64,000 nucleotides of DNA, taken from NCBI GenBank assembly GCA_016788905.1, contig JAEURZ010000005.1:1-64000 (forward strand). The letters are read 5' to 3'. Positions 9,937 through 60,300 of this stretch are shown in pieces (within the stretch, counting starts at the first letter, position 1; every line of letters starts with the position of its first letter). This stretch comes from Elusimicrobiota bacterium (GTDB lineage Bacteria > Elusimicrobiota > Elusimicrobia > FEN-1173). Position numbers and translations under genes: made by a program. Below the pieces are notes generated by a model, which made no database searches, was not told the origin of the DNA, and saw only the letters and a program-made list of their open reading frames with translations.

Positions 9937-12126
9937 ATGACCGAAAATCATCGATTCGTCGACGAATGGCTCGCCCGCACGTTGGCGACATGTTCCTCCC
10001 TTAAACCTGAGGTGATTGACACATTGAGAAAGGAGAGGATCCCCAGCTTAGCCGACGGGCTTATTGCGGGCGCCCACGCCACGGAAGATTTCATCTGTGA
10101 AGCGGTTCACACCCATCACCAAATTCCCCCCATTCCTACCGGGACGGTGGGCACTGACCGATGGGGCAGGGTGTTCTTCCCCGAAACCCTGTGCCAACGC
10201 CTTCAGGTGTTCCCGGTGCGAACCCAAGAAAACAGAGTGGACGTCGCCATGGTCAATCCCCTTGATTTGGATGCCCAAGCCGACCTGGCCGCGATTTCGG
10301 GTCGAGAGATCGTCCCCTTTTACGGCACCCCGAACCAGATTCTCTCACTGATTTCGGCCTCTTATCAGGCGGACTTCGGTGTCTCCGCTTTGGTTGAACG
10401 GCTCGGCGTAGACAATCGATGTGAATTCGTCGACCCCGAAACCCACACGCCCCTCCTCACGGAAGAACCGGATATCTGGGCACCGGTCAACACGCTGGTG
10501 AACAGCTTGCTCACCAAAGCGATTTTAACCCGCGCCTCGGACGTTCACATTGAACAGGGGGAGCGGGGGACGGAAGTTCGTTTCCGCATCGACGGGACCT
10601 TGCGCAATGTCATGACAGTACCGCGCGACATCGGGGCGGGGCCGCTGGTTTCTCGCATCAAGAGGATGGGAAACCTGGATGGGACCGACCCGCCCAAACC
10701 CCAAGAGGGGCGGGCCCAAATCCGAGTATCGGGCAATGACATCGAGTTGCGGATCTCATGTTTTCCCAGCTCTTTCGGAGAGAAGATCGTGGTCCGCCTC
10801 TTGGACCCCCGTTCGGCGCATCGGTCACTTCTGGATATGGGATTTGGTTCCACCAACGTGGCCCGAATGGAAACCTTGCTCAACCTGCCCCAGGGCGTGA
10901 TTGTCGTCACAGGACCTCCGGGGTCCGGAAAAACCACAACGCTTTACGGTTTCCTGAACAAATTAAAATCTCCGGACATCCACATCATTACGCTTGAGGA
11001 TCCGGTTGAATATCGACTGGAAGGCATGAGCCAAGTTCACGTCAATGAGCGACAGGGAATGACCTTCGCCACCGCCCTTCAATCCGTCCTGCGGCAAAAA
11101 CCGGACGCCATTTTTGTGGGAGAAATGAGAGACGCGCAAACAGCATCCACTGTTTTCCAGGCCGCTGTGACAGGACACCTGGTTATTACAACATTGGAAA
11201 CCCACAACGCCCTTTCCGCGATCAATCGGTTAATTGATTTGGGAGTGGACCGGTTTAAACTCGCCCCCGTTCTCTTAGCCATCACCGCCCAACGACTCGT
11301 TCGACGACTCTGCGCCTCCTGCCGGAGACCCGTTCCGTATGAAGAGATCCCCCCTTTCGTCGTGCGTTGGATGCGTTATTATACGTATGAACCGACCCTG
11401 TATCATCCCGGAGGATGTTCGTTCTGCGGATTCAGCGGGTACGTGGGACAACTGGCCCTTTTGGAGTTCTTACATATGAACCGAGAACTTCGTGACCGGA
11501 TTTATCAGGGGGGCGACGCCTCCACTTTGCATTCCATCGCCGAAAACAAAGGGGATCTTAAAACGCTACGGCAAGATGCCCTTTGGCACCTGACGCGGGG
11601 GGATACCTCCCTGGAGGAAATTTCCTCTCATCTGGTTTTAAAGGAAGGGGAAAAGCCCCAACCCGTAGAAAAATTCCAATCTCCCCCTTCTCCCAGCGCA
11701 CGGCGAATTCTCATTGCGGATAACGATCCGGTACTCCGGACGATGCTTCATACCCTCCTGGCCAATTCTGGTTTTGAAGTCATCGAAGCGGCGGACGGTC
11801 GTGAAGCCTTGGTGGCCGCCAGCCAAACCAACCCGGACCTGATGATGGTGGATGTCCACATGCCCCACGTGGATGGATTTGACGTGATCAAAGGGATCCG
11901 GGGAATCGTGGGAAAAACTGGGTTACCCATCGTGGGCTTAATTGGCGACACCGGTGACGCAAATCGCTTTCAAGCCCTCGACATGGGGGCCGACGATTAT
12001 CTTCTGAAACCCATCAAACCCACGCTGGTCTTGGCGCGGATCAACGCTGTTTGGAGACGATTGGGTAAATCCGATTCCTCCCCACCGGCCCATCCCGCCG
12101 TGACCCCCAACGCAATACGCCATTGA
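9937..12126 (+). CDS. PilB/GspE-family ATPase with C-terminal receiver domain
   Basis: A 729-residue secretion/pilus assembly ATPase. The N-terminal MshEN-type domain (about 20-170) is followed by the catalytic core: Walker A GPPGSGKTTTLYG (near 326-338), Asp box, and Walker B-like DAIFVGEMRD (about 390). CxxC pairs at LCASC and CSFC (about 458-461 and 495-498) form the zinc site typical of GspE/PilB. After residue 588 there is a complete response-regulator receiver domain with acidic residues in ADND, phospho-acceptor Asp639 in VDVHMP, and Lys691 in LLKPIKP. The GGAGGG upstream supports ATG 9937. No pilin, PilC or secretin gene is nearby, so it acts with components encoded elsewhere. The fused receiver suggests control by phosphorylation (inference). 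Confidence 0.9.
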   Translation: MTENHRFVDEWLARTLATCSSLKPEVIDTLRKERIPSLADGLIAGAHATEDFICEAVHTHHQIPPIPTGTVGTDRWGRVFFPETLCQRLQVFPVRTQENRVDVAMVNPLDLDAQADLAAISGREIVPFYGTPNQILSLISASYQADFGVSALVERLGVDNRCEFVDPETHTPLLTEEPDIWAPVNTLVNSLLTKAILTRASDVHIEQGERGTEVRFRIDGTLRNVMTVPRDIGAGPLVSRIKRMGNLDGTDPPKPQEGRAQIRVSGNDIELRISCFPSSFGEKIVVRLLDPRSAHRSLLDMGFGSTNVARMETLLNLPQGVIVVTGPPGSGKTTTLYGFLNKLKSPDIHIITLEDPVEYRLEGMSQVHVNERQGMTFATALQSVLRQKPDAIFVGEMRDAQTASTVFQAAVTGHLVITTLETHNALSAINRLIDLGVDRFKLAPVLLAITAQRLVRRLCASCRRPVPYEEIPPFVVRWMRYYTYEPTLYHPGGCSFCGFSGYVGQLALLEFLHMNRELRDRIYQGGDASTLHSIAENKGDLKTLRQDALWHLTRGDTSLEEISSHLVLKEGEKPQPVEKFQSPPSPSARRILIADNDPVLRTMLHTLLANSGFEVIEAADGREALVAASQTNPDLMMVDVHMPHVDGFDVIKGIRGIVGKTGLPIVGLIGDTGDANRFQALDMGADDYLLKPIKPTLVLARINAVWRRLGKSDSSPPAHPAVTPNAIRH

Positions 12127-12241: not shown

Positions 12242-13273
12242 ATGGCCGTTCCTAATACGTTTGCACCCAAGTTGGATGTTTCTTACACGCAGGTGGATGC
12301 GCTTCCCAAAATCGCAAAACTGCACGCCTACGCACAACCCAGCACTGGAAGAAGCGTTTGGCAAATCATCAACACCGCGGTGCCCTTTGGCCTCATGTGG
12401 TTTATCGCCTATAAAAGTTTGGCCTATTCTTATTGGATCACACTTCTCTTGACGGTTCCCACCACACTTCTTGTCATCCGATTGTTCATCATTCAACACG
12501 ACGCCGGACATGGTTCTTTCTTTAGTTCACGGAAAGCCAACGATTTCGTAGGGTTTTGGATAGGTGTTTTAACGTTGTCCCCCTACCAATATTGGCAAAA
12601 AACCCACGCCATTCACCACGCCACTTCCGGAAATTTAGACAAACGGGGCTTTGGTGACATTGATTTGTTAACCGTAACCGAATACAAAGGCCTGTCCCGA
12701 TGGGGGCAATTCAAATACCGAATGTACCGCCATCCCCTCACCATGTTCATCGTGGGTCCTTTCTTACAATTTGGTCTTGTTCACCGGCTCCCCCTCAACA
12801 TTCCTAAATCCTGGAAACGTGAATGGAAAAGTGTTCACCTCACGAACCTCGCCCTCTTGGTCGTGGGACTCGTGGCCTGGCAAACCATTGGTTTCAAGAA
12901 TTTTTTATTGGTACAGGTTCCCATCACTTTCTTGTCCTGTGTGATGGGGTCGTGGTTGTTTTACATCCAACATCAATACGAAGACACCTATTGGCGACGG
13001 GACAATGAATGGGATTATTTTGAAGCGTCCGTGAAAGGAAGTTCCTACTACGTTTTACCGAAAATACTCCAATGGTTCACCGGAAGCATTGGCCTCCACC
13101 ACATCCATCACTACAACAGTCGGATCCCCAACTACCGCCTGCAAAAATGTTTTGACGAAAACCCGGAATTCCAAAACGTCACCCGCCTTACACTCTGGAG
13201 CAGCTTGAAATGCATCCCCCTCGCTCTCTGGAACGAACAAACCCAAAAACTAGTTTCCTTTCGGTCTCTGTAA
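12242..13273 (+). CDS. Membrane fatty acid desaturase
   Basis: A 343-residue di-iron membrane desaturase that introduces a double bond into acyl chains. Three histidine boxes are present: HDAGH (about 82-86), HAIHH (about 122-126) and HHIHH (about 283-287). Hydrophobic segments surround them (GLMWFIAYKSLAYSYW, and ones near 200-240). The third box lacks the Q-x2-HH form of front-end desaturases and resembles omega/Delta12-type or bacterial DesA-like enzymes; regioselectivity cannot be read from sequence. AAAGGA precedes the ATG. It stands alone between the GspE-like gene and a convergent RF1-like gene that ends 6 bp away. A second, unrelated-class desaturase lies at 41199-42044. Confidence 0.9.
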   Translation: MAVPNTFAPKLDVSYTQVDALPKIAKLHAYAQPSTGRSVWQIINTAVPFGLMWFIAYKSLAYSYWITLLLTVPTTLLVIRLFIIQHDAGHGSFFSSRKANDFVGFWIGVLTLSPYQYWQKTHAIHHATSGNLDKRGFGDIDLLTVTEYKGLSRWGQFKYRMYRHPLTMFIVGPFLQFGLVHRLPLNIPKSWKREWKSVHLTNLALLVVGLVAWQTIGFKNFLLVQVPITFLSCVMGSWLFYIQHQYEDTYWRRDNEWDYFEASVKGSSYYVLPKILQWFTGSIGLHHIHHYNSRIPNYRLQKCFDENPEFQNVTRLTLWSSLKCIPLALWNEQTQKLVSFRSL

Positions 13274-13279
13274 AGAAAT

Positions 13280-13693
13280 TCAGATTTCGGACAAATTCGG
13301 GGGGCGACGGTTTTCTTTCCGTTCGGCGGTATGCCGTTTGGCCGCGAGCATTTTTTCTTTTGAGCGACGACCCCGGCGGCGTTTTTGACGTCGAATTCGT
13401 TCGACCGCCTGACGCTTGGCGCTCGCCGCCCCCAACAGTTTCTCTTCTAAATTTTCCGCCAACCGCTGGCGGGCCCGATAACGGTTGAGCGTTTGGGATC
13501 GATCTTCCTGACACCGAACGGTGGCGCCGGAAGGAACATGGACCAACAGGACGCAACTGGAAACCTTATTGACGTTTTGCCCCCCCGGTCCCCCCGATCG
13601 GACAAACCGTTCTTCCAAATCCGCTTCAAACACCCCCAACCGTTCCAGACGGGCGTTCAACGCTTTCCAAGCACCTGAAGAAATCGGGGCCAT
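13280..13693 (-). CDS. RF1-domain GGQ protein (ArfB / MTRFR-like peptidyl-tRNA hydrolase)
   Basis: A 137-residue protein with the class-I release-factor catalytic loop, RSGGPGGQNVNKV (about 32-44). The codon-recognition domains are absent. A strongly basic C-terminal tail (RRQKRRRGRRSKEK and beyond) resembles the ArfB tail that enters the mRNA channel of stalled ribosomes. It likely hydrolyses peptidyl-tRNA on stalled or non-stop ribosomes. The length matches the small RF1-domain family. The start at ATG 13693 has no strong Shine-Dalgarno. It is convergent with the desaturase gene, with only 6 bp between stops and no visible terminator. Assignment to ArfB proper versus the MTRFR-like branch is uncertain. 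Confidence 0.85.
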   Translation of the reverse strand: MAPISSGAWKALNARLERLGVFEADLEERFVRSGGPGGQNVNKVSSCVLLVHVPSGATVRCQEDRSQTLNRYRARQRLAENLEEKLLGAASAKRQAVERIRRQKRRRGRRSKEKMLAAKRHTAERKENRRPPNLSEI

Positions 13694-13804
13694 GGGTTGA
13701 GCTTATTTCCCTACAAAATCAAAACATCGATGTTTCGTCATTTCCCGATTTTACATGATTTTGCAATTCCCTTACCGCCCTTGAACCCCGTCCCCAGAAA
13801 GACA

Positions 13805-13826
13805 CTCTCCCGATAAGCGGGGAGAG
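13805..13826 (-). terminator. Hairpin downstream of the lipoprotein gene
   Basis: Inverted repeat CTCTCCC / GGGGAGAG with a 7-nt loop, 19 bases beyond the stop of the minus-strand lipoprotein gene. The following bases on that strand (TGTCTTTCT) are only partly T-rich, so it is a probable rather than ideal intrinsic terminator. Confidence 0.55.
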
Positions 13827-13844
13827 GCCTCCTGGCGATTTCTT

Positions 13845-14471
13845 TTAGATGTTAATGGTCCACTTGAATGGGTATTGGGTGGTTCCGGTTTCAGAACCGA
13901 TGGTGTAGGACCCGTCAATGACGAGCAGATCTCCTTTGTAATTGTAGTTGTATTTATAATAATAATACCTGTATTTTAATTGGTAGTTGACGTCAGCCCA
14001 TTGCGTGTAGGAACTCCCGGTGACGGACAAGGTTCCGTAGATGGACGAGTTTTTTAGGCAGGTCCCATTTTTTTCTACAAGAAAGACCAGCGTTCCACCG
14101 GAACTCGTGTAGTTGTTGGCGGAAAAATACGTCGTCCCATTGACGGTATAGACTTGCGAAGACCCGTGCACGGCCGGTGGATAATGATACGTTGTGGAAC
14201 TAAACGTCACGTCCCCGGGCGAACAATTGGATAGCGCCGACGGGGCGGAAAGGGCGTGGATGTTGCTCCCCGTAATTTCCGCAAGAATTCCTGTGGCCAC
14301 TTTGTTCATTAACTGTTCTTCCACAGGGGCCGCTGTTAAGTTCGTGTCGGGAACCGCCGCATCACTGGACGACGGCGTATCTGTTCCGAAGAACTTGTCT
14401 TTTGAATTACGACTGCAAGCGGCCGCCGCGCCAATCAGACAGACAGCCAACAGTATTTTTAAGGTTTTCAT
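13845..14471 (-). CDS. Secreted lipoprotein of unknown function
   Basis: A 208-residue protein with a lipoprotein signal peptide (MKTLKILLAVCLIGAAAACS); the lipobox AAAC puts the lipidated cysteine at residue 19. The mature part is rich in Ser, Thr, Tyr and Asn, as expected of an envelope beta-protein, and includes a run of tyrosines (YRYYYYKYNYNYKGD). I do not recognise the family. Two adjacent ATGs are possible; the second (14471) has the better distance from GAGGAGG. It is monocistronic: a hairpin follows it, and 129 bp separate it from the response-regulator gene upstream. Confidence 0.75.
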   Translation of the reverse strand: MKTLKILLAVCLIGAAAACSRNSKDKFFGTDTPSSSDAAVPDTNLTAAPVEEQLMNKVATGILAEITGSNIHALSAPSALSNCSPGDVTFSSTTYHYPPAVHGSSQVYTVNGTTYFSANNYTSSGGTLVFLVEKNGTCLKNSSIYGTLSVTGSSYTQWADVNYQLKYRYYYYKYNYNYKGDLLVIDGSYTIGSETGTTQYPFKWTINI

Positions 14472-14603
14472 CATTCCTCCTCATGAGAATAATTTCATCC
14501 GGAAGGGTTACCCCTTCCAAGAGAATATTAATCAAACGGTCTGGAATGAGGCTGAACACCACCTGAAATATGTCTGAAAAGCGGGGACCTAAAAAAAGGA
14601 TAG

Positions 14604-15293
14604 TTAGCTCGAACGGTCGTTGAAGCGGTATCCTTCCCCCACCAAGGTTTCAATCCACTTTCCACACGACCCGAGACCAGCCCGCAGATTTTTAATGTGG
14701 GCTTCCAGTGTATTGGGGGTCACCACCACATCGTCCCCCCAGAGCGAGGAAACGAGCGCTTCCCGTGTCCAAAGTCGTCCGGGTTTTCGAATGAAGGTGA
14801 GAAGGAGTTCGTATTCCTTGCGTCGCAAGGTGATGGGACGGCCTTTAAGGGTAACCTCACGACGAGAAGCATCGACCAGGAGATCCCCCAGGCGGTAGCA
14901 CGTTTGAACCTGTCCCGCGTCACGCGAGCGCCGCAATACCGCCTCAACACGCGCCAAGAGTTCCTGGGGTTCGTAAGGTTTGGTTAAATAATCATCAGCC
15001 CCCGTTCGCAATCCCAAAACTTTTTCCTGTGTTTTTCCTAACACCGTTACCAAAATAAAGGAAAGGGAGGCGGTGGCCTTGTTCCCTTTCAAAATCTCAC
15101 ACATTTTCAGACCGGTAATGCCGGGAAGTTGAAGATCCGAAATCACCAGGTCGGGTTGGCTTTGTTGGATGAGAGAAAGGCCCTCCTCCGCCGAAACTGC
15201 AACCGTCACATGATAACCAGCCTGAACCAAAACCCGTCGCGTCATGGCCGCCATCCCCGGATCGTCTTCCACCAACAGGAGGGAGGCGGTCAC
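14604..15293 (-). CDS. OmpR-family DNA-binding response regulator
   Basis: A 229-residue two-domain regulator. The receiver has acidic residues at 10-11, phospho-acceptor Asp53 (VISDLQLPG) and Lys105 (YLTKPYEP). The C-terminal winged helix ends with the usual WIETLVGEGYRF. The GTG start overlaps the histidine kinase stop by 4 nt (GTGA), so the two form a translationally coupled two-component pair. It is the last gene of the operon that begins with the FN3 surface protein. Targets are unknown. A duty linked to the envelope proteins encoded upstream is an inference from co-transcription. Confidence 0.93.
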   Translation of the reverse strand: MTASLLLVEDDPGMAAMTRRVLVQAGYHVTVAVSAEEGLSLIQQSQPDLVISDLQLPGITGLKMCEILKGNKATASLSFILVTVLGKTQEKVLGLRTGADDYLTKPYEPQELLARVEAVLRRSRDAGQVQTCYRLGDLLVDASRREVTLKGRPITLRRKEYELLLTFIRKPGRLWTREALVSSLWGDDVVVTPNTLEAHIKNLRAGLGSCGKWIETLVGEGYRFNDRSS

Positions 15294-16717
15294 GTGGGGT
15301 GACTCTGGGGAAGTGTAAAACGAAAAGTGGTTCCTTGATCCTGCTCTGAACTAACGGTCAACTGGCCCCCTTGGGCTTCGGTGAGGGAGAGGGCAATGGC
15401 GAGGCCCAACCCGGTACCCTGTTGTTTTTTCACATCCCTTCCAGCGTTCTCGGCGGTTTTGAAACGATGGAACAAATGGGGAAGGTCCCGGGCCGGAATA
15501 CCGGGACCGGTATCGGAAACCGTCACGGTCACGGCCCCGGGAGGGGTCGCCTCGGCCGACAGGGTGATGGCATCTCCTGAGGAGGTGAACTTAAACGCAT
15601 TGGACAAGAGATTAGACAATATTCGGTAGGTTTGGGATTCATCCCCCCGAACCAGAGGCAAATCGTCCGTGGTCACCAATCGAAAATCTCTATCAAATTC
15701 TTCCGCCTGGGACCGAAAAAGATCGCGGAGTTCTCGAATCACTTTGTTCATTGAGAAATCCTCAGTTAAAGAGTCCAAAAGACCCTGTTTGATTTTAGCG
15801 GCGTCTAAAATATTATCGACCATGTTTCGAAGTCGAGCGGTGCTCACGAGAATCGTGGCCAATATTTGTTGGTGGGATTCTTTAGAAAGGGGCGCCGGCG
15901 GGTCCATCAGATACTTCGTGGCCATCGTGATGGCCCCCAAAGGATTGCGTAAATCATGGGAGACCGTGGCCACAAATTCGTCCTTCAACTCGTCAAGTTT
16001 GGCCAAGCGGCGGGACATTTCTCTGAAAGCCGAAGCCAACTCGCCTATTTCATCCCGCCGGGTCACAGAGGGTTTCGCCCCCCAATCCCCCCTCCCCAAT
16101 CGACGGACAGCGAGGGTGAGCTCATTTAAAGGCCACACCAAACCCCGCGCCACTCCCATGGAAACCAAAACACCAATGACCAAACAGACAACCGTGGCCC
16201 CCCCGAACCGTTGCAACGAGGCCGCCAACGCCGTGTGGACACGGTCTTTCTGGCCCCGACCATCAAACGCCAATAGGGCCACGCCCACCCGTTCCCCCCC
16301 CCGGTTCACCGGTCCCGCGTAAACCACCAGGGGCGTCCCTTCCGTCTCAGGAAAAACGCGGTGGCCAGGACGGTCCAACCCGCGGGCCCAATGACTGATC
16401 GCATCGATCGCCACGCTATTTTTCAAGCTTAATTCCGTATGCATCATCACCCGCCCATCCGTCGCGAGAAATGAAGCCCAACGGACATCGTCCGAATGAA
16501 GAAGTTCACGAACGTAATGAATGAGCGTAATTTCATCTTTAGAAAGAACCGATTGTTCGCACAGGAGAGTCCACCGTCCGCTTTCTTCGCGGTTGGCACG
16601 ATCCTGTTCTTGCTCTAAAATTTCCCGTTGGGTCCAGGACAAAGCCCCCGCGTAAAGAACGAAAGATCCAACCGTCAATCCCGCCACGTAGAGCATGAAC
16701 CGCGTCCGGAGAGTCAC
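15290..16717 (-). CDS. Membrane sensor histidine kinase
   Basis: A 475-residue kinase. Membrane segments lie near 8-27 and 175-197 and flank a periplasmic sensor of about 145 residues. A HAMP linker (GLVWPLNELTLAVRRLGRGD) follows, then HisKA with the phospho-accepting His in VSHDLRNPLG (about 255). The ATPase domain has N-box ILSNLLSNAFKFT, G1 VSDTGPGIP and G2 GTGLGLAI. Start GTG 16717 overlaps the upstream TPR gene stop (GTGA), and its own stop overlaps the regulator gene. The signal is unknown. It is encoded directly after outer-membrane and TPR proteins, so it may sense an envelope state (inference). Confidence 0.93.
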   Translation of the reverse strand: MTLRTRFMLYVAGLTVGSFVLYAGALSWTQREILEQEQDRANREESGRWTLLCEQSVLSKDEITLIHYVRELLHSDDVRWASFLATDGRVMMHTELSLKNSVAIDAISHWARGLDRPGHRVFPETEGTPLVVYAGPVNRGGERVGVALLAFDGRGQKDRVHTALAASLQRFGGATVVCLVIGVLVSMGVARGLVWPLNELTLAVRRLGRGDWGAKPSVTRRDEIGELASAFREMSRRLAKLDELKDEFVATVSHDLRNPLGAITMATKYLMDPPAPLSKESHQQILATILVSTARLRNMVDNILDAAKIKQGLLDSLTEDFSMNKVIRELRDLFRSQAEEFDRDFRLVTTDDLPLVRGDESQTYRILSNLLSNAFKFTSSGDAITLSAEATPPGAVTVTVSDTGPGIPARDLPHLFHRFKTAENAGRDVKKQQGTGLGLAIALSLTEAQGGQLTVSSEQDQGTTFRFTLPQSHPT

Positions 16718-17946
16718 GGGGTCGGCCTTCTTTCCTCATGGACACGTTCGAGCGCTTTACGGGCGTAGGCGTGCCCCGGGTTGACCTTTAAACACGCCAG
16801 AAATCGGTCGGCCGCTCCAGACAGGTCCCCCTCGGCGTAACGGATGAGCCCAAGGGTGTATAATTTTTCTGCCGTTTCCGCGGCGTCTCCCGCCAGAACG
16901 GGGTCCTCTGTTTCAACAAGGCGGCCCAACCGGTTCCCCACGCGCACTCGGATACGTTCAATTTCGTCCCGGGCCTGAGGGTCCAACGGATCTTCCTGGA
17001 GCACCGCCAGCCACCCTTGGGCGGCCGAGATCCATTGGCCCGCCCGTTGTGCTTTGAGTGCTTTTTCACGATGAAAGAGGACCAGCTTTTCGCGAGCCTC
17101 ACGAGACACCCGTTCTTGCGTTTTTTCAAAAAGGAGAATTAATCGTTTGTCTCCCGGAGCGGCCTTCATGGCGCTTTGCAACAGGGAAAGAGCGTCTTTG
17201 TCTCTTTTTTCTTTAATCGCGGTTTCCGCCTTCGCCAATCCCTGTTCTATTTCTTTTTCTGTTTGATCTTTTTCAAACCGATCCTGGGCTTCAACCCACA
17301 GGTCCCGCAGAGGACCGTCGTCCGGCCTGAGCGATAAGGCTTCTCCCCACGATCGGGAGGCTTCCTCCCAATCCGATTTGCAAAAAGCCACATAGCCCAT
17401 GACTCGTTTTTCGTCCGATGGGTTAAGGAGAACTCCCGCGTGCAAGGCGGCCTCCAAATTGGAACAAACCGAATGGAGATAATCCCGAAACTTTTGGCTG
17501 GCAGGATCATCCCCCAACGTGACCTCCAACATCAGGTCCACACCGCGACAGGCCCGCAAGGTTTCTTTGGGGGTGCGTTTATGGCTTGCCCGTTCGGCGA
17601 TTTTCAACTCCGCCAGCGCCCGGCGAAGATCCCGTTGTCTTTCCTCCAAAACATTTTCAGCCTGATCAATGATCTGTTGGAGATCTTTGGCGGGGATTCG
17701 ATCGATCTTGTTTCCGTCAATTACTTTTTGTCCCGCCGACAACAAAAGTCGGGATACCCGCCTGTCCCGCGGCGTGTGAATCAACGCCTCCGTTAAAAGG
17801 TTGACGGCCGCGGCGTATTCCCCGCGATCATAAGCCGCTTGTCCCTCCTGAAAATAGGACTTGGGCGTTTCTTCACCTGCGAAAGCACTCCCCAATAATA
17901 AGACCAGCGCCCCTGCTGGGACCCCCATTCTAAAAACCCATTTCAT
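16714..17946 (-). CDS. Exported tetratricopeptide-repeat protein
   Basis: A 410-residue protein with a signal peptide (KWVFRMGVPAGALVLLLGSAFAG) and several TPR-like units. One lies near the N-terminus (YFQEGQAAYDRGEYAAAVNL) and one near the C-terminus (YTLGLIRYAEGDLSGAADRF). Between them is a charged alpha-helical region. Such proteins scaffold periplasmic or outer-membrane assemblies. It overlaps the PorV-TPR gene upstream and the kinase gene downstream by 4 nt each, so its product is probably made in step with both. The C-terminal TPR resembles the one fused to the PorV-like protein, which may reflect duplication or a shared partner. Confidence 0.82.
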   Translation of the reverse strand: MKWVFRMGVPAGALVLLLGSAFAGEETPKSYFQEGQAAYDRGEYAAAVNLLTEALIHTPRDRRVSRLLLSAGQKVIDGNKIDRIPAKDLQQIIDQAENVLEERQRDLRRALAELKIAERASHKRTPKETLRACRGVDLMLEVTLGDDPASQKFRDYLHSVCSNLEAALHAGVLLNPSDEKRVMGYVAFCKSDWEEASRSWGEALSLRPDDGPLRDLWVEAQDRFEKDQTEKEIEQGLAKAETAIKEKRDKDALSLLQSAMKAAPGDKRLILLFEKTQERVSREAREKLVLFHREKALKAQRAGQWISAAQGWLAVLQEDPLDPQARDEIERIRVRVGNRLGRLVETEDPVLAGDAAETAEKLYTLGLIRYAEGDLSGAADRFLACLKVNPGHAYARKALERVHEERRPTP

Positions 17947-19037
17947 GGGGTAAGGGTGATGTTCTGTTTTTGGAGGAGGGCGTTGGCGTCCCGCAGACCA
18001 ATAAGCGCGCGCCGATGGTCTGGATTTTTAGAAATGGCCCGGGCAAAATGGATCACGGCTTGGGCGTAATCTTTGGATTGCAAACTAACCACCCCGCGAG
18101 CGTAATGTTTTTCCGCCATGTTTCCAAAGCGATACGTTATCCCCAGGTGATGAATTTCACCCAGTGCCCCAAGGGGAACATACCCATAGTCAACGTCCAA
18201 GTCCCAAGCCCGAAAACCTAACCCGAGGGTCACCCCACTGCCTTCGCGAGCCTCACGCCCATTAAATCCCACCCGGAACGCCGCCGCATCACGCGCCCAA
18301 TATTCCACCCCCGCGACCAGGGACGGACTCTGCCCCGCCGGAAAGAGCCCATCCACGGAAACGCTTAGCCCTTCAAAAAAGGGTCGAAAATTCACTCCGG
18401 CTTGAAGGGAACGGGGCAAAGACTCATTTTTACCCTGGAATTTTGGATTTTGCCCCCAATGACGAAAGGCAGCTCCGAACGTTAACGTCTTCAAGGGCCC
18501 CTGACGGGCGGGAGACCAAAGACCTCCCCCATCTAAAACAAGCGCGTGGGCACTGGTGCCCGCCAATTGTTCCTGGGCGTAGGTTCCCTGAACTCCCCAC
18601 GCCCAACGGGACCCAAAGTTCCTCCCATACCCCAATCGAGTGGCGGTATCCCGGGCGTTCACATTCCCTTCGGACCCCCCGGTGGGGCTATACCCAGGGA
18701 TGTCCCCATAACTCAGGGTGGTCAGTCCTCCCGCCAGAGCCCCACCGGCCATAAAGGGATGGGCGAATCCCAGATTCTGAACGTCCACATCGTCGATCCA
18801 TCGGGCCCCGCTCAAGGAAACTTCGTCCCGCCATATTCGGCCCAGGCCCGCCGGATTGATTTGAATCCCCGCCAAACCCGTAGCCTCTGCCACACCCGCA
18901 CCGCCCAGAGCGGAGGTACGCGCGCCCGTAGGAAGCCGTAGAAATTCAAACGAGTCGGTTCGTCCCGCCTGAGCCAGGGAACCAAAGCCACCCACCCAAC
19001 CGATGACCATGGACACGAGAAGGATTTCTTTTTTCAT
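17943..19037 (-). CDS. PorV/PorQ-like outer-membrane protein with C-terminal TPR
   Basis: A 364-residue protein. The signal peptide (MKKEILLVSMVIGWVGGFGS, cleaved near AQA) is followed by a start typical of PorV/UPF0164 proteins: FLRLPTGARTSALGGAGVA, then INPAGLG. A FadL-like beta-barrel follows. The last 55 residues form a TPR pair (ARGVVSLQSKDYAQAVIHF). ATG 19037 is chosen because it lies 4 nt after the stop of the preceding gene and begins the signal peptide; a longer frame to 19181 would overlap that gene. In Bacteroidota PorV shuttles type IX secretion cargo; PorV-like proteins in other phyla are not characterised. The gene upstream encodes a surface protein with a sorting-like C-terminus. 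Confidence 0.85.
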   Translation of the reverse strand: MKKEILLVSMVIGWVGGFGSLAQAGRTDSFEFLRLPTGARTSALGGAGVAEATGLAGIQINPAGLGRIWRDEVSLSGARWIDDVDVQNLGFAHPFMAGGALAGGLTTLSYGDIPGYSPTGGSEGNVNARDTATRLGYGRNFGSRWAWGVQGTYAQEQLAGTSAHALVLDGGGLWSPARQGPLKTLTFGAAFRHWGQNPKFQGKNESLPRSLQAGVNFRPFFEGLSVSVDGLFPAGQSPSLVAGVEYWARDAAAFRVGFNGREAREGSGVTLGLGFRAWDLDVDYGYVPLGALGEIHHLGITYRFGNMAEKHYARGVVSLQSKDYAQAVIHFARAISKNPDHRRALIGLRDANALLQKQNITLTP

Positions 19038-19041
19038 GGGA

Positions 19042-20727
19042 TCACCGGAGAATAACGAGTTTCCCGCGTTTCTTGTCGGTGGGACTTTCAATGAGATAGA
19101 AATAGACGCCACTGGAGAGAGGATCCCCTTCCTCATCACGCACATCCCACACCAGCTCACCGTCCCCATCTTTTTCTTCAAGGGTTTTGATCAACCGCCC
19201 CGGCAAACTAAAGACACGGACGGTAGCGACTTCAGCCAGGTCCCCAAAAGTGATCGCGGAGTCTCCCCGTTCCCCTCGAAAAGGGACCGGATAAGCGTAC
19301 GCCGTTTCTAAACGGGTATCCATTTGACCCGAAACAGAGAACACACCCAACCCAGGGGCGCTCACGGTAACAGACCGAGCGTTAAGATCCACGCGAGAGG
19401 AGGGCAATCGGACCCAGAGAGCCTTTTCTTCATTTAATCGGTAAACGGAAAGGGTTCGCGCTCGAAGTTTCGTGCCAGACCCCACATCCACATTTTCACC
19501 GTCAGCGGACGGATAGAGAAACCGCACTTCCACATTCCCGTGGGGTGAAAGGAAGGCCCCTCCTATGTCCATGGCCCGAATTTCCGCGACGGCGCCCGGG
19601 AGAGGGGTGCGGGGAAGAGTCGGGTTTTGTTCCAACTTGGATTCAGCGGAAGCAATCAGGCTGGGAAGCTCCAGAGACCCCAACGGCGTGAGAATCGGAG
19701 TGGTGGAAAGCACAAGACGATAGTCCTCCGCGAATGTTCCAGACGACACCGTGAAACGCACAGCGCCGTCAGGACTTTGAATCGATCCAGAGGACCCCGA
19801 GGTGTTATAGAAAGGGAGTGTGCCCGTGGAACCAAAATATTGATACGAGGTGACCAGAGCCTCCCGATTAACCGCTCGAACACGGGCGAAATAGGTCGTT
19901 CCTTCCGCCAACCCATTAAAATCCGCGTAAAGCTGGGCGGTTGACGTGGAAACAAGACCATGGCTGAATCCGGACACGGGGGAAAGTTGCGCCTCATAGA
20001 CAGTGTCGGGTGGATTTCCTATCACCGCTCCGGAGGTCCAGTGAAGACGGAAACCCTGTACAGTCAAATGGGAATACCTGGGGACGGTCATTCCCGGAAC
20101 CTCTGCCGCGGTGGCTGTGGATCCCAACGAAACGAAGGAGGTTTGATTCCCGTCAGTGTTAACAGCACGAACCTGAAAGCTGTAGGTGGTGTTGGGAGAA
20201 AATCCGTTAAAGATGATGTCCGTGTTCATTGTGGCGGTCGTCTCAATAACTGTCGTAAAACCGTCCGAAGTGGTTTGAATTTCATAGAGAGTGCCCAGGG
20301 GATTCCCGTTCTGTCCCCACTGAGGTTGCAGTTGAGTGGTGGAAACAACAGACACTGGAAGCGCCAAGGGAAGATTGGCCAACGTACGAGTAGAGCCCAG
20401 CGCGACGCTGCCCGCCATGGACGCCAGGGTGGACACTTGAGCGTAATAGAGGGTGTTGGGGAGAAGCGGGATCGTTGAACCGAAAACGGTGGGCGGGTTG
20501 AAAGTCGCCAGGGTGAACGGAGAAAGGAAAGCCGGGTCGTCATCCACCTGACTGTATTGGACAGTACCCGTGCTGCACAAGGAACCCCAATGAAGCGTTA
20601 GGCCCATTTCGTTCACCAACGAAAATGGGGCTGTTGAAAGATAGACACAACTTGCCGCTGGGGTCGTCAACAAAATTCCCAGGACAAAAGCGCCTAGAAG
20701 GACCTGACCCTGCCTTATTCTTTTCAT
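19042..20727 (-). CDS. Surface protein with fibronectin-III-like repeats and FlgD/sorting-like C-terminus
   Basis: A 561-residue exported protein. A signal peptide (ending near TTPAASC) precedes about three FN3-like repeats of roughly 95 residues. These share the pattern W-x-NGNP/IGNP, TxYE, NTTYxFxVRAVN and SLGSTAT. A beta-rich region follows. The last 85 residues have the FlgD Ig-like / type A sorting-like form (VRVFSLPGRLIKTLEEKDGD, then SSGVYFYLIES and KLVILR). Such C-terminal domains serve as secretion signals in type IX systems; here that is an inference. It is the first gene of the five-gene operon ending in a two-component system. The cysteine at the end of the leader could also suggest lipidation. 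Confidence 0.82.
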   Translation of the reverse strand: MKRIRQGQVLLGAFVLGILLTTPAASCVYLSTAPFSLVNEMGLTLHWGSLCSTGTVQYSQVDDDPAFLSPFTLATFNPPTVFGSTIPLLPNTLYYAQVSTLASMAGSVALGSTRTLANLPLALPVSVVSTTQLQPQWGQNGNPLGTLYEIQTTSDGFTTVIETTATMNTDIIFNGFSPNTTYSFQVRAVNTDGNQTSFVSLGSTATAAEVPGMTVPRYSHLTVQGFRLHWTSGAVIGNPPDTVYEAQLSPVSGFSHGLVSTSTAQLYADFNGLAEGTTYFARVRAVNREALVTSYQYFGSTGTLPFYNTSGSSGSIQSPDGAVRFTVSSGTFAEDYRLVLSTTPILTPLGSLELPSLIASAESKLEQNPTLPRTPLPGAVAEIRAMDIGGAFLSPHGNVEVRFLYPSADGENVDVGSGTKLRARTLSVYRLNEEKALWVRLPSSRVDLNARSVTVSAPGLGVFSVSGQMDTRLETAYAYPVPFRGERGDSAITFGDLAEVATVRVFSLPGRLIKTLEEKDGDGELVWDVRDEEGDPLSSGVYFYLIESPTDKKRGKLVILR

Positions 20728-20942
20728 TTTTGGCGATCACTCTCCATACTCAAGCTTACCTGGAACCCCTGACTTCTGCCTGCTCGCGAACTGAAATCAT
20801 CCTGAAATATCACTCTTCCTTGATTCCTTTTCATAGATATACTGCCCCATTCCACCCCTTGTCAATGGCAAGGTTGTGCCGCAATTCTGACTCACTAAAT
20901 AGTACTATAAGCACATACGTAACATCACACCGAGGCGTTAAA
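20728..20942. promoter_or_regulatory. Divergent intergenic region between the FN3 operon and the ATPase-MscS operon
   Basis: This 215-bp AT-rich region must carry the promoters of both divergent operons. Candidate -10-like hexamers include TATAAG near 20910 (plus). No pair of hexamers with standard spacing is convincing. Confidence 0.4.
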
Positions 20943-54331: not shown

Positions 54332-57300
54332 CTATTTCGGCTTTTGGAGCGGGCTTCCTGATACATCGCGTTTTAACGATTCCACAACCAGCGGTCCCCG
54401 GGGCAATTTCATATCTGCGGGCAAAACCATCGCGTTGTTCACCAATTGAGCCCCGACCACCCCTTCCATAGCTTGGCGGAGCATCCATCCCGCGGCTCCC
54501 GTATACCCATGCCATATCATCCGCCCCTGATCGTAGGTGGTAAGCATATCCGCGGACTGCTTGTTGGGTTGCCCCCCATAGAGTTCGATTTCCGTTGGGG
54601 AAAGATGCGACAACGGGGAGATCTTCATCCACAAACGATACGCCGCTTCCCGGTATTCTTTCGCTCGAGCCACATCCTGATCCAACTCCGCCCGTTCGAC
54701 CAAAAGTCTCGCGGCGCGAACAAGCCATTGGACCCCGTGACAATACATTCCGTTTTCACGGACGCCTTCGGGGTAATGACTGGACCGACCCAAATAGGGT
54801 TTCGTCCCTTCCCGCAACGCGGGCCATCCCAGAAGAATCACGTTATCCCGTTCGAGGACTTTCAGCGCGGTTTGAAACACGATACGGTTCCGCTCCGGGT
54901 TGATCCCCGCATACACAGCCCAGGCGGCCGTTAACGCGTCAATTTCCCACACGCCGCTGTCTTTCAATCCGATCTCTGTGCCGTCATCGTGGATGGCGCG
55001 GAGGTAACGATCGTCACGCCACGTACGTTCCAGTGCCGCTTCCAACTCGTTCAACCGGCGAAGGTAATATTCTTTCCGGTCACGGCCGTCTATTTTCTCA
55101 ATAGGATCCACCATGTTTTTGAGAATGTAATGGAGGAAGAAACCCAACCACACACTTTCCCCTCGACCTTCACTGCCAATCTCATCAAGACCATCGTTCC
55201 AGTCTCCGGTCCCGATGAGCGGAAGACCGTGGGCTCCCATCCGTTTTTCCAGCACCAGATCAATGGATTTCATGCAATGACGATAAACAGAATCTTCAAC
55301 GACCGATCGAAGGTAGATGGTCCCCCACCCGTGCTTGTTCTTCGGAAGAGGAAGGAAAGGGTTTTCCCCCTTAAGATAAGTCGTCCGCTCATCCAGAAGA
55401 GACTCATCCCCCGTCATGCGCACGTATTCACCCGCGCCCCAAGCCAACCACAGCAAGTTATCGGAGGCGTGAGACCGGTTGGAAAAAGCGCTCCGACCAT
55501 CGTGCAACGTGTGGAACCAATGGACAACGTCGCCTTCTAAGAACTGCTGAGAAGCGTGCAAAAGGATCTGTTTGCGGGCCAACGCAGGGTCCACCCAAAT
55601 AAGGTTTACGGAATCCTGCAGCTGATCGCGGAACCCGTAAGCACCGCTCGTTTGATAGAACCCACGCCGGGCCCAAATCCGTTCCGCCAGTCCTTGATAT
55701 TTCAACCAATTCTGGAAGCGATCAAATTCCGGTTGATTGGTTTTTACCTGGGTGGTAGACATCAGACCCAACCACCACCGCCGGGTCTCTTCAAGGCCGA
55801 TCCGGGCGGCCTCAACGGTTTTGTATTTACGAATAATCGTCCCAGCTTTTTTCTTGGAATCTGTTTGGCCCAAGAGAACCACAACGGTCCTCTCCCCTTG
55901 GGGTGGGATTTCAAGAGTTCCTAAGAACCCCGCAATCGGACGGTCGTCCCAATGGGGCGTCTGATCCGGCTCTCCCTTTTCTACCATGAAGGGACGCGCG
56001 ACCCCTCGCCCTTTCCCCATGAAGCGACCCCGTTTCGTCTCCACCTGATCCCACGGGAGGGACATGGCCACAAAGGCTGGCCCCGCCCGGAAAGCGTTTC
56101 CAGGGTTTTCGAAAAACACCGCGTTCAGTTCCGAATCTTTATGAATTTGGAGCGCGGGCCGACGCGGTTCACCCTGACTGGCCAGCGTGATTTGGAAATA
56201 GGGCGCCAAACGAAGACGCCGAGGTTTTGCGGAATTGTTTTTGACCGTTAAGAGGTAAACACCTGTGGGTTCTGAGGGAGGAACGAACACCACCAGTTCT
56301 GTTGACAGATCTCCCCGGTTCATCTGAAAGGTGGCTGTGCCATCCACACCAAAGCGGCACTCGTGCTTCGCCGATAGATCGTTCAACGGGTGGTGGGTCG
56401 GCGAATACCATTCCTTGCTGTCCGTGTCATAGAGATAAATGGCCTCGCCTGGCAGTTCGCGCGTCACGGTATCGGCCCAGTCCGTGGTGATGGGATTCTG
56501 TTGCGAGTTCCCATTGGCGGTCATGTGAAGCCCTCGATTGGTCACCATCACGTAATGCCCCACATCGTTGGAAAGAGCGTGATCGTAAGGCCGTGGCGTA
56601 AAGGGCGTGTGGACCACCAAGGTGTTTCCATCCTCAGTGTAACTGGAATAAGGAAGTGGTGTTCCGGGAAGAATTTCCCCATGCCCCACCAAATGTCCCG
56701 TCTTTTTGACAACCGCTTTGGCCCCCGGGGAAGCCGAGGCGCCGCGCGGATTGAGGTGTTTTTTCACCAACCCCAAAGCCCCGTCCCGATCCTTTGCGTA
56801 ACCCACTAAAAAGTTTACCGTCCGGGAGGATTTAGGTTCCACACGAACCCCCAACAAGAGACTCCCGATGGGATCAAAAGTGGGATAAGCCGATGTGTCT
56901 TTCGGATCAAGAAACGCCAAGGTCTCCAACAAACGGGGAGCCCATAGGCTGCGCGCCCGGCCGATAAAATCCATGCGCGACGAGTGAAACCCTTCCGTGG
57001 GGATATCCGACGCTAAGAAACCCATACTCTTTGTTTTTTTCTGGTAAGCCAAGAGGGTGTTTTCCGCCTGCAGGTATTCCATTTCCGGAAACAAACGGCC
57101 GTATTGCGTGTGCCCGCGATCCGATTGGGGATTGTCCATCACCCATTCGAGATAAGGAACAACCTTCACGTTCCGAACAGTCTCCGACATATTTTCAACT
57201 TGCACCGTCCACCGTTCCGCGGCGCTGTTCACATCAGGAAGTTTAATTTCCAGAGTGGTACGCAAACCGTTTTCAGTGTTCACCACCCAAATGGAATCGG

Positions 57301-60300
57301 TTCCTTGTTCCACTTGGGACGCCTTGATCCGGTCGGTTGGGAAATTCCCTAAAACAGGCCAGTTTTTCACTGCGGCACCAGTCGATGGGGACGTGTCCAC
57401 CACAAACAACGCTCGCCCCGCGGGGTCAAGAATGTCATACGACCGCCGTGTTAAATCGTATCCTTTGGCCAAAATCTCGCTGTGCGCGGCGCCATCCGAT
57501 TGAACCACAACCTTGTATTCCCGGTTGGCCAATTCGTGTTTGGCGGGCCGTCGTTTGGCGTTCCGTTGCGAAAAACCCTTCAATGCGGCTGAAACAAGAG
57601 CCACCAACAGCACCCCACTTCCTCCCCAAAGAAGAATTCGATCCCAAGGCATTTCGAGAAGTTTCCCCGAAAAGCCAATAGCGCTGGCCCCGGCTTTCTG
57701 TAATTCCTGCGATTTGGTCCAGGCAAAATCCCAGTCCGCGCCGCGGGGGATGTAGAAGGGGATCAACAACGGACCCCATGTGGTGAACCGCTTGACGCTT
57801 TCAGGGAGGTACCGCTGAGCGGCGGAGGGCCCAATATAGCGCGCGATCTTTTCGTCCAACTTGTCCATCCCAATAAAGCTCAAGTTGACCAACGTCGCGA
57901 CGCGAAGACCCATATGGTCAATCCAGATTAAGACCCGAACCAAATCCACCGCCAAGAGAGAAACAAATACCCCCAAACTCCAGGCTTGGAAGTCCCCCGG
58001 GCTCAACGTAAGGTTTTTGAAAATGGCGTAAAGCGTCCGAATGGCCCCGTCTTGGTTGTACCACGTGGCCTTGGCCATCATGTGAATCCCCGTGTTAATG
58101 ATGGGCGACATCCAAAGTCCCCATCGCATCACGTGGATCAGATTGACCACCAATTCGGAAGCACCGGCCTTCGAGAAAAAATACTTAATGGGCGCTTTGT
58201 CCCTTTGAAAGTAGGCGGTCATAAAAACCCGGTTAATCGCAAACAAAGGCGCGGCAATGGACCAGGTAATCAGGCCCGCCAAAGCTTCGTCAAACAGCAA
58301 TTTAACCCCGCCCGTGTAGCCCCCCAGATCGATTCGGCCCCATTTGCTCACCAGGGAGTAAACGGTGAAATTGGTTTTTTCAAGCCCCACCGATGTGTAC
58401 GCCCCAAACTTTTCAATAATCGCGGTGACCTGAACCGCGTCCAAGTAAAAAGCCACCAGAGAACCGATAAACACACCCACGAGAGAATCAACGATATAGA
58501 CCCGTAACGTTTGAATACGTCCCTTATTCCGAAGACCGTTCAAAAGATCGCGAAGCAAACTGACCCCACTCGAACACATCAGTCCCGCCATGAGACCGAA
58601 GAACAAACGGTCCTCCGTTTCCATGTACATCATTCCGCTGGTCAACCCATAAGCGAAAACACCGCCCACAACAATTCCCCGTAAATACAGTGTCCATTGA
58701 CGGTAACCGTAACGGGCCCGCACAAGGAAAGGCATACTGCCGTCAAAACTTTCAATAATCGTTTTGATTAAAGGGAAAATCAACGCCCCGAACAACATCC
58801 CCCCGATAATCGGGGACGACAGGAAGAACAATCGAGCGCTGTCCCACAAAACCAACCCTTTGATCCCGTAAAGAAACCCCATAAAGAGTCCGCTGTAGGC
58901 CATGCCTTTCTTGAAACCCGTCCTCCCGTGGCGGGCCACCGCATCCCCATTGGGCGCGTATCCCAACATCCCATCCAAAATCATGCCCGTGATGAGGTAG
59001 GCTTCCATCCAAAGCCCTCCCTGGGACAGCATGGCCGTCAGAAGAGCAATCGGAATTCGCAAATAATCGGGAAGTGTTGCCACGGAAAAACTGGCTCCCC
59101 AATCCGCAATCGAAGGAGCCAAAACGACGCACAGAGTCACGAGGGCAATCCACGCGTGAGCCTTTTTAGTTTTGAGGCCAATTCCTTTCGTGGCATACCC
59201 AATGGCATGGGCAACCAATTGATTAAAAACAAAAAGGAGAACAAATCGACCAAGGAACTCTTGCAAAGCGGGCCACCCGCTCCCCGCTCCCACCATAAAG
59301 AATGCCCCGATGGATTGGAGAAGGGGAACAGTTTCCAACATTAATAACCATCCAAAAAGGAAGGGAGACCCAACAATCATCGCCGCGGAAATCGGCCGCA
59401 AATGCTTACCGGAAGACGAGAGGCGAACCCCGTTGGCCACGTGATAGATCGCGCAAACCAACCCCGCTGTAATATGGCTTTTCATTAACACGTGCGTCCA
59501 CGCCGTCGGCGCCTGCCACAACACCTGGGTGCTGGCCGTGGCCCACAAAAATCCCGTCACAAAAAAGTTCTGAAAGATTTCACCCGACGTGAGATGGGTT
59601 TTCGTGCGGGTGAATTTATACAACTCCGCAATCAACACGCCCGCCGCCCCAATCCAAATCCCCGAAGAAAGCGCGGACACGGGAACCGTTCCCAGCGCGT
59701 AGATGGCCAAAGAAGTTGCCGCCGTTAAAACCAACGCCAGCCCGGTTAAGAAATGAAACCGCATGCGCGAAAAGGTGGTTTCCTGCCGTTCCTCTTCTCC
59801 CAAAAGGTCCTCAAGCTCCTTTTCTTGGCCCCAAACTTTTTTGGCCCATTTCCCCACTCGCTTAAAGAAGAAAGACACCCCCAACGCCAGCAACAGGATC
59901 CAGAGAGTCTTTTGAGCCCCCGACGGACCCGTTTCTTTGACAGGAAGCTCCCCCTTAAAGAATTCCAGATCCAGAGAAACCGTTCCCGTGCGCTCCCCCC
60001 CACTCAAAGGAGTCAAGACAAAAACCGCTTCTTTCAAATTTCCAATCAAAGCCCAATCAATGGCTTCTTCGATAACATGGACTCCCGGCTGAAGGACCAA
60101 GGGAATGGTTTGAATTTTCTCGCCCTTCAGTTCCAGTTTAAGCTCAATTTCTGAAACGATGGCGGGGTTGGTCAAGTTCGCCGAAACGCGAACACCATTG
60201 ACTGACTTTTTCGATAACCCAGCCGGATAATCTTTAGACCAAATTCCCACCACAGCCCCCGGAGCGCATCGATACGTAAACCGAAGAACTTCTTTCTTCA

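What the first reader, a model, noticed from the sequence alone, without database searches (positions are those of the whole stretch)
14604..20727. Surface protein, PorV-TPR, TPR protein and two-component system in one coupled operon
Five genes run without gaps (4-nt overlaps or 4-bp spacing). The first encodes an FN3-repeat protein with a sorting-like C-terminus, the second a PorV-like barrel with TPRs, the third an exported TPR protein, then a kinase and regulator. In Bacteroidota PorV handles cargo with such C-termini. This could be a dedicated cargo-export-sensor module outside that phylum, in which the kinase monitors surface delivery.
Basis: partly seen in the sequence, partly recalled or inferred. 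Interest (0 to 1): 0.62.

Follow-up and report, generated by a model that had tools for sequence, protein, structure and literature searches.

The report
Dedicated PorV secretion operons in Elusimicrobiota
A little-known bacterial phylum carries a relative of the Bacteroidota "type IX" protein-export machine, with about twenty surface proteins each encoded beside its own outer-membrane carrier; this operon is one such pair with its own sensor kinase and regulator, next to DNA repeats the regulator probably binds.

Summary
In detail: five coupled minus-strand genes encode an exported FN3 protein with a T9SS-type C-terminal domain (CTD), a PorV-family barrel with one C-terminal TPR unit, an exported TPR protein, a histidine kinase and a PhoB-like regulator. 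The genome is an Elusimicrobiota MAG. It has a SprA (T9SS translocon) homologue, as do 93 of 100 sampled Elusimicrobiota genomes. It has 22 PorV genes, 18 beside a gene with the same type of CTD. PorU (C25) is absent; GldL and GldM were not found. A paper in the library states that T9SS genes are absent outside the FCB phyla. The five-gene order recurs exactly in a relative's orthologous operon and in a paralogous operon of the same genome; permuted or fused versions occur elsewhere. A repeat, ATTTCA-N5-ATTTCA, occurs once in the 2.5-Mb genome, upstream of the cargo gene; among 232 fetched loci its only other match lies upstream of the orthologous cargo gene. Four-unit 11-bp arrays lie just beyond both regulator genes. 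Best reading: a dedicated cargo-shuttle unit of a SprA/PorV secretion system, autoregulated by its own two-component system. That the kinase monitors surface delivery is possible but untested.

The parts
19042..20727 (-). cargo: exported FN3-repeat protein, 561 aa, with T9SS-type C-terminal sorting domain
   Evidence: fn3 1.6e-12; TIGR04183 23.6 bits over cut-off 23; N-terminal hydrophobic signal segment 7-31
19042..19293 (-). C-terminal domain (CTD) of the cargo
   Evidence: TIGR04183 match; model with pLDDT above 90 in much of its core; closest solved folds are the PorZ CTD, PorU CTD and T9SS-bound NucA CTD, then FlgD
17943..19037 (-). PorV-family outer-membrane shuttle, 364 aa: plug, 14-strand barrel, C-terminal TPR helices
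   Evidence: NF033709 149.8 bits; AF2 model with 14 strands; Foldseek best hits PorV 8gl6_F 1.7e-14 and 6h3i_F 4.3e-13, ahead of FadL
16714..17946 (-). exported TPR protein, 410 aa, probably periplasmic
   Evidence: TPR_2 2.1e-12; signal segment 4-22
15290..16717 (-). sensor histidine kinase: TM 7-26, periplasmic domain about 27-162, TM about 166-197, HAMP, HisKA, HATPase_c
   Evidence: in a 100/99 clade with the kinases of three other cargo-PorV modules
14604..15293 (-). PhoB/OmpR-type response regulator
   Evidence: Response_reg 8.9e-25, Trans_reg_C 4.2e-20; 50% identical to the regulator of the orthologous operon
20792..20808 (-). putative regulator box 1: ATTTCA-N5-ATTTCA, 65 bp upstream of the cargo start
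   Evidence: only exact match in the 2.5-Mb genome; only other match in 232 loci is 47 bp upstream of the orthologous cargo
14542..14580 (-). putative regulator box 2: four units with 11-bp period (TTTTCA, ATTTCA, TGTTCA, ATTCCA) between the regulator and the next gene
   Evidence: only array scoring at least 21/24 in 418 kb of this genome; none at this score in shuffles or at other periods
13845..14474 (-). small exported, possibly lipoprotein, gene of unknown family (209 aa), downstream of box 2; probable sixth member
   Evidence: ORF; no Pfam match; no homologue in the loci fetched

Best explanation
The operon is a self-contained cargo-shuttle unit of a SprA/PorV-based (T9SS-like) secretion system that is widespread in Elusimicrobiota. 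The FN3 protein crosses the inner membrane by Sec, folds its CTD, crosses the outer membrane through the single SprA-like translocon and is withdrawn and held at the surface by its own PorV-family protein (inferred from homology). The periplasmic TPR helices of PorV and the separate TPR protein form the periplasmic face of this pair (inferred; in some modules they are one polypeptide). The kinase-regulator pair switches its own operon on: the PhoB-like regulator binds 11-bp-period direct repeats in front of the cargo gene and in front of the next downstream gene (predicted from conserved sites). Shown by computation: gene content, order, family membership, folds, SprA presence, recurrence, conserved repeats. 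Not shown: secretion, shuttle specificity, DNA binding, and what the kinase senses.
For: PorV and CTD family and fold matches. SprA homologue C13:12579-18029: profile against PDB SprA 6H3I 5.2e-29; single copy; 93/100 genomes of the phylum. 22 PorV genes in this genome, 18 with a same-strand CTD gene within two ORFs (plus the window); by my count 19 of 24 CTD genes lie next to a PorV gene. PorV expansion of 11-35 matches per genome in most of 31 class members. Same five genes in the same order in L190 (all five homologous, 34-50% identity) and in paralogue L052; permuted in L229/C3 and L224, fused PorV-TPR in L050 and L193. P0004, L190, L229 and L052 kinases form a 100/99 clade, all PorV-linked. 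PorV density near sensor-family kinases of other genomes 5.6 times background, P about 2e-5. Conserved boxes at equivalent places in window and L190.
Against: PorU/C25 absent and GldL/GldM not found, so energisation and surface anchoring would have to differ from known T9SS. PorV-CTD co-divergence is weak (Mantel r 0.26, p 0.02), so strict one-to-one specificity is unproven. Two thirds of the related sensor kinases in other genomes are not near PorV or CTD genes within 5 kb. Box 1 in the window lacks a good -10 element at the expected distance.
Confidence: 0.62

Rival explanations
1. Delivery-monitoring module: the kinase periplasmic domain, through the TPR protein, reads whether PorV is loaded or the cargo has reached the surface, and the regulator adjusts cargo and shuttle supply.
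For: Kinase, TPR protein, shuttle and cargo stay together across paralogues and relatives; TPR and PorV fused in L050 and L193 with the kinase gene immediately downstream; precedent: the P. [quoted passage not shown]
Against: The sensor is weakly Cache/CHASE8-like, a fold usually used for small ligands (own knowledge), and the same sensor family occurs in kinases far from any PorV. No contact was modelled or tested.
Confidence: 0.25
2. The PorV-like protein is a FadL-type pore for hydrophobic compounds and the FN3 protein reaches the surface by another route; the two-component system regulates uptake.
For: FadL is the next-best fold after PorV.
Against: PorV structures outrank FadL; PorV/PorQ model clearly over cut-off; most PorV genes are paired with CTD genes; SprA present.
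Confidence: 0.07
3. Loose neighbourhood: a surface-protein operon that happens to sit next to an unrelated two-component system.
For: The sensor-kinase family is found in several other contexts.
Against: Coupled reading frames, same order in orthologue and paralogue, and regulator-type boxes at the cargo promoter in both window and orthologue.
Confidence: 0.04

Closest known systems
Type IX secretion system (SprA/Sov translocon with PorV and type A CTD cargo), Bacteroidota
   Same: SprA-homologous translocon, PorV-family shuttle, Ig-like CTD matching TIGR04183
   Different: No PorU/C25 sortase, GldL/GldM not found, many PorV genes instead of one, organism outside the FCB group
PorP/SprF shuttles paired with type B CTD cargo (F. 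johnsoniae, PMC12618676)
   Same: Cargo gene adjacent to the gene for its own shuttle; several pairs per genome
   Different: There the paired shuttles are PorP/SprF and type A CTDs all share one PorV; here the multiplied shuttle is PorV-family and the CTD is type A-like
PorXY-SigP and PorA regulation of T9SS (P. gingivalis, PMC7712824)
   Same: Two-component system tied to T9SS, with a CTD surface protein proposed to act upstream of the kinase
   Different: There one global system controls the machine; here a local PhoB-type pair is encoded inside each of several cargo operons and the predicted sites are at the cargo promoter
PhoB box / OmpR-PhoB family direct-repeat operators (own knowledge)
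   Same: 11-bp-period direct repeats; in L190 both boxes end 11 nt before TATACT
   Different: Unit is WTTTCAg rather than CTGTCAT; binding untested

Membership tests
Type IX secretion system | SprA/Sov translocon | tested here: met
   Homology by profile to 6H3I SprA 5.2e-29; TIGR04189 hits in 21/21 relatives but below its 200-bit cut-off; 93/100 phylum genomes
Type IX secretion system | PorV/PorQ-family shuttle | tested here: met
   NF033709 over cut-off; fold
Type IX secretion system | CTD-bearing cargo (TIGR04183) | tested here: met
   23.6 bits over cut-off 23; seven own-genome matches over cut-off; fold
Type IX secretion system | PorU C25 sortase | tested here: not met
   None in own genome; found in 1 of 100 phylum genomes at 1.2e-31, which shows the search works
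Type IX secretion system | GldL/GldM motor | tested here: inconclusive
   No credible GldM in 60 genomes, no GldL in 21, but no positive-control genome was available
Type IX secretion system | GldK/GldN ring, PorT, Plug, SprE/PorW | not tested
PorV/PorQ family (NF033709) | Score over family cut-off and PorV-like 14-strand barrel with N-terminal plug | tested here: met
   149.8 against 90 bits; 14 strands
T9SS_OM_PorV equivalog (NF033710) | Score over 250-bit cut-off | tested here: not met
   56.9 bits
PhoB equivalog (TIGR02154) | Score over 296.2-bit cut-off | tested here: not met
   188.6 bits; member of the OmpR/PhoB-type class only
OmpR/PhoB-type response regulator | Receiver plus Trans_reg_C domains | tested here: met

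The most novel reading that the evidence does not exclude
Elusimicrobiota run a type IX-like system without the GldLM motor and PorU, in which one SprA translocon serves some twenty dedicated PorV shuttles, and several cargo-shuttle pairs carry their own kinase that reads shuttle loading through periplasmic TPR domains: a private delivery-feedback loop per surface protein.
Probability: 0.2. Interest if true: 0.85.

Novelty: new variant of a known kind. Interest (0 to 1): 0.66.

Why it matters
A 2024 paper held in the library states that T9SS genes are absent outside the FCB phyla (PMC11285876); here a SprA homologue is found in 93 of 100 sampled Elusimicrobiota genomes, with expanded PorV in most class members sampled. 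If the system works without PorU and the GldLM motor, it is a natural minimal version that would separate what SprA and PorV do alone from what the motor and sortase add, and it puts cargo-specific shuttles in the PorV family. The built-in two-component modules offer a test of whether bacteria sense delivery of single surface proteins.

Tried and rejected
Complete T9SS: rejected as a filing because C25 is absent. Sensor-family exclusivity: rejected, since only 11 of 33 sensor-family kinases of other genomes lie within 5 kb of PorV or CTD genes. The paralogous module on contig 3 (L229) has only a 2-mismatch box upstream, within chance, and L052 has none in front of its cargo gene, so the box is claimed only for the window operon and its orthologue. 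Literature: no paper pairing SprA with Elusimicrobi as a whole word (a narrow query that would miss 'Elusimicrobia'); papers holding T9SS or type IX secretion together with Elusimicrobi gave no report of the system in the phylum in the three I opened, where some hits were reference-list entries only. Structure jobs used only window proteins plus loci from the search for related loci, to stay inside the stated rule. The M6 peptidase as a PorU substitute is a lead only.

Full report
Observation. The five genes are real and tightly coupled on the minus strand. Cargo 20727-19042 ends four bases before the PorV ATG at 19037; the next three junctions overlap by four bases. Pfam and NCBIfam assign fn3 and Por_Secre_tail (23.6 bits, cut-off 23), PorV/PorQ family (149.8, cut-off 90), TPR, a HAMP-HisKA-HATPase kinase and a PhoB/OmpR-type regulator. 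Cargo, PorV and TPR protein start with a hydrophobic signal segment; the kinase has two transmembrane segments around a periplasmic domain of roughly 135 residues.

Folds. An AlphaFold2 model of the PorV protein (mean pLDDT 79) shows an N-terminal plug, 14 strands and a C-terminal TPR helix set; the C-terminal helices are modelled with lower confidence than the barrel. Its best solved matches are PorV in the T9SS translocon (8gl6_F 1.7e-14, 6h3i_F 4.3e-13), ahead of FadL. The cargo CTD model (mean pLDDT 76, core mostly above 90) is closest to the CTDs of PorZ and PorU, then the NucA CTD bound in the T9SS complex, and FlgD follows. Only the PorZ match is below E 0.001. So the C-terminus resembles known sorting domains in both sequence score and fold, though neither score is strong on its own.

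Genome. The window lies in a 2.51-Mb, 99.85% complete genome. Named hits of the SprA scan place the group in Elusimicrobiota. A SprA homologue of 1816 aa sits on contig 13 next to two genes I read as lptF/lptG-like; its family profile matches F. johnsoniae SprA 6H3I at 5.2e-29 over three stretches. The profile finds it in 93 of 100 phylum genomes, 85 of 90 good ones. Peptidase C25 (PorU) is absent here and in 99 of the 100 phylum genomes searched (the single hit is a positive control). GldM and GldL gave no credible match but without a positive-control genome.

Expansion and pairing. PorV-family hits number 24 in this genome, which I count as 22 genes, and 11-35 matches in most of 31 class members, falling to 3-4 in one family with small genomes. 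Of the 22, 18 have a CTD gene on the same strand within two ORFs (for 17 of 21, plus the window). A profile of CTDs built from these loci finds 26 places in the genome; leaving out one inside a PorV protein and one inside a TPR-OmpA protein, I count 24 CTD genes, 19 of them beside a PorV gene. PorV and CTD distances correlate weakly (Mantel r 0.26, p 0.02). In F. johnsoniae, paired shuttles are PorP/SprF for type B CTDs, whereas type A CTDs share one PorV (PMC12618676). The arrangement here is therefore different.

Recurrence of the module. In G001 (same family) locus L190 has all five genes in the same order, 34-50% identical. In this genome L052 is a full paralogue in the same order, its regulator fused to a methyltransferase-like domain. 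L229 on contig 3 holds kinase-regulator-PorV-TPR-cargo; L050 holds cargo, PorV fused to TPRs, kinase, regulator; L048 has cargo, PorV, a TPR-FlgD-OmpA protein and a different, dCache kinase. L224, L203, L196 and L197 in other genomes show the same set rearranged or in part. The window kinase clusters at 100/99 with those of L190, L229 and L052, all PorV-linked, and the PorV-linked label is more clustered on the tree than in any of 500 shuffles. Outside this genome, PorV genes are 5.6 times denser near kinases of this sensor family than genome background (P about 2e-5), yet 22 of 33 such kinases have no PorV or CTD gene within 5 kb.

Regulatory sites. Inspecting upstream regions of six modules gave ATTTCA-N5-ATTTCA in front of the window cargo gene and of its orthologue in L190. 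It is found once in the whole genome, at 20792-20808, and once more in 232 loci, in L190. The pattern was chosen after seeing it in both, so its joint rarity is somewhat flattered; my rough estimate of chance sharing is about 1 in 1000. An extended four-unit scan, also designed after seeing the sites, then found one array of at least 21/24 in 418 kb of this genome, at 14542-14580 between the regulator and the next gene, and one in L190, between its regulator and a second PorV-CTD pair; neither 64-kb window shuffles (at 22) nor L190 shuffles (at 21) produced any, and other periods gave none in the window. In 2.8 Mb of loci only one further, AT-rich hit reached 20. In L190 both boxes end 11 nt before TATACT, the geometry expected of a PhoB-like activator; in the window box 2 is followed by TAATAT at the same distance, while box 1 has no good -10. 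The simplest reading is autoregulation by P0005 and its orthologue.

Mechanism. Secretion through SprA with withdrawal by PorV is inferred from homology. The role of the TPR parts as the periplasmic face of the shuttle is inferred from their fusion to PorV in some modules. What the kinase senses is open: the domain is Cache/CHASE8-like by weak scores only. A CTD surface protein acting upstream of a two-component system has a proposed precedent in P. gingivalis PorA (PMC7712824).

Novelty. PMC11285876 states that T9SS genes are absent outside the FCB phyla. My library searches found no report of SprA in Elusimicrobiota, but they cover open-licence papers only, one query was a narrow whole-word match, and several hits were read only around the search terms. 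I file this as a new variant: a T9SS-like system, not a type IX system in the strict sense.

Noticed in passing
L044:11288-13015 and 13048-14352; also L081, L083, L097, L127, L139, L066, L070: The CTD proteins encoded near sprA in several genomes are M6 metallopeptidases with the sorting tail (S8 subtilase in L144), often next to a PorV gene: a possible stand-in for the missing PorU.
   Followed up: partly
window 9937-12126: GspE/PilB-type secretion ATPase with a C-terminal response-regulator receiver domain fused on.
   Followed up: no
L048:4296-5747: Third gene of a related module combines a TPR-like stretch, a FlgD-like domain and an OmpA peptidoglycan-binding domain, recalling PorE architecture.
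   Followed up: no
G007:C28:53631-54455: PorV-family match inside a 7398-aa open frame, perhaps a cargo-shuttle fusion.
   Followed up: no
G044:C1:953509-953793: sprA remnant with two in-frame TAG stops in a small genome; all seven phylum-sample genomes without any sprA match belong to the same family, f15.
   Followed up: no
L153, L144: SprA homologues in bins titled Sumerlaeota and Clostridia; either misnamed bins or wider spread.
   Followed up: no
window 54332-61987: 2551-aa GH94-family protein, cyclic beta-glucan synthase-like.
   Followed up: no
L052:3459-4853: Response regulator of the paralogous module is fused to a methyltransferase-like domain instead of a DNA-binding domain (judged from the sequence).
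   Followed up: no
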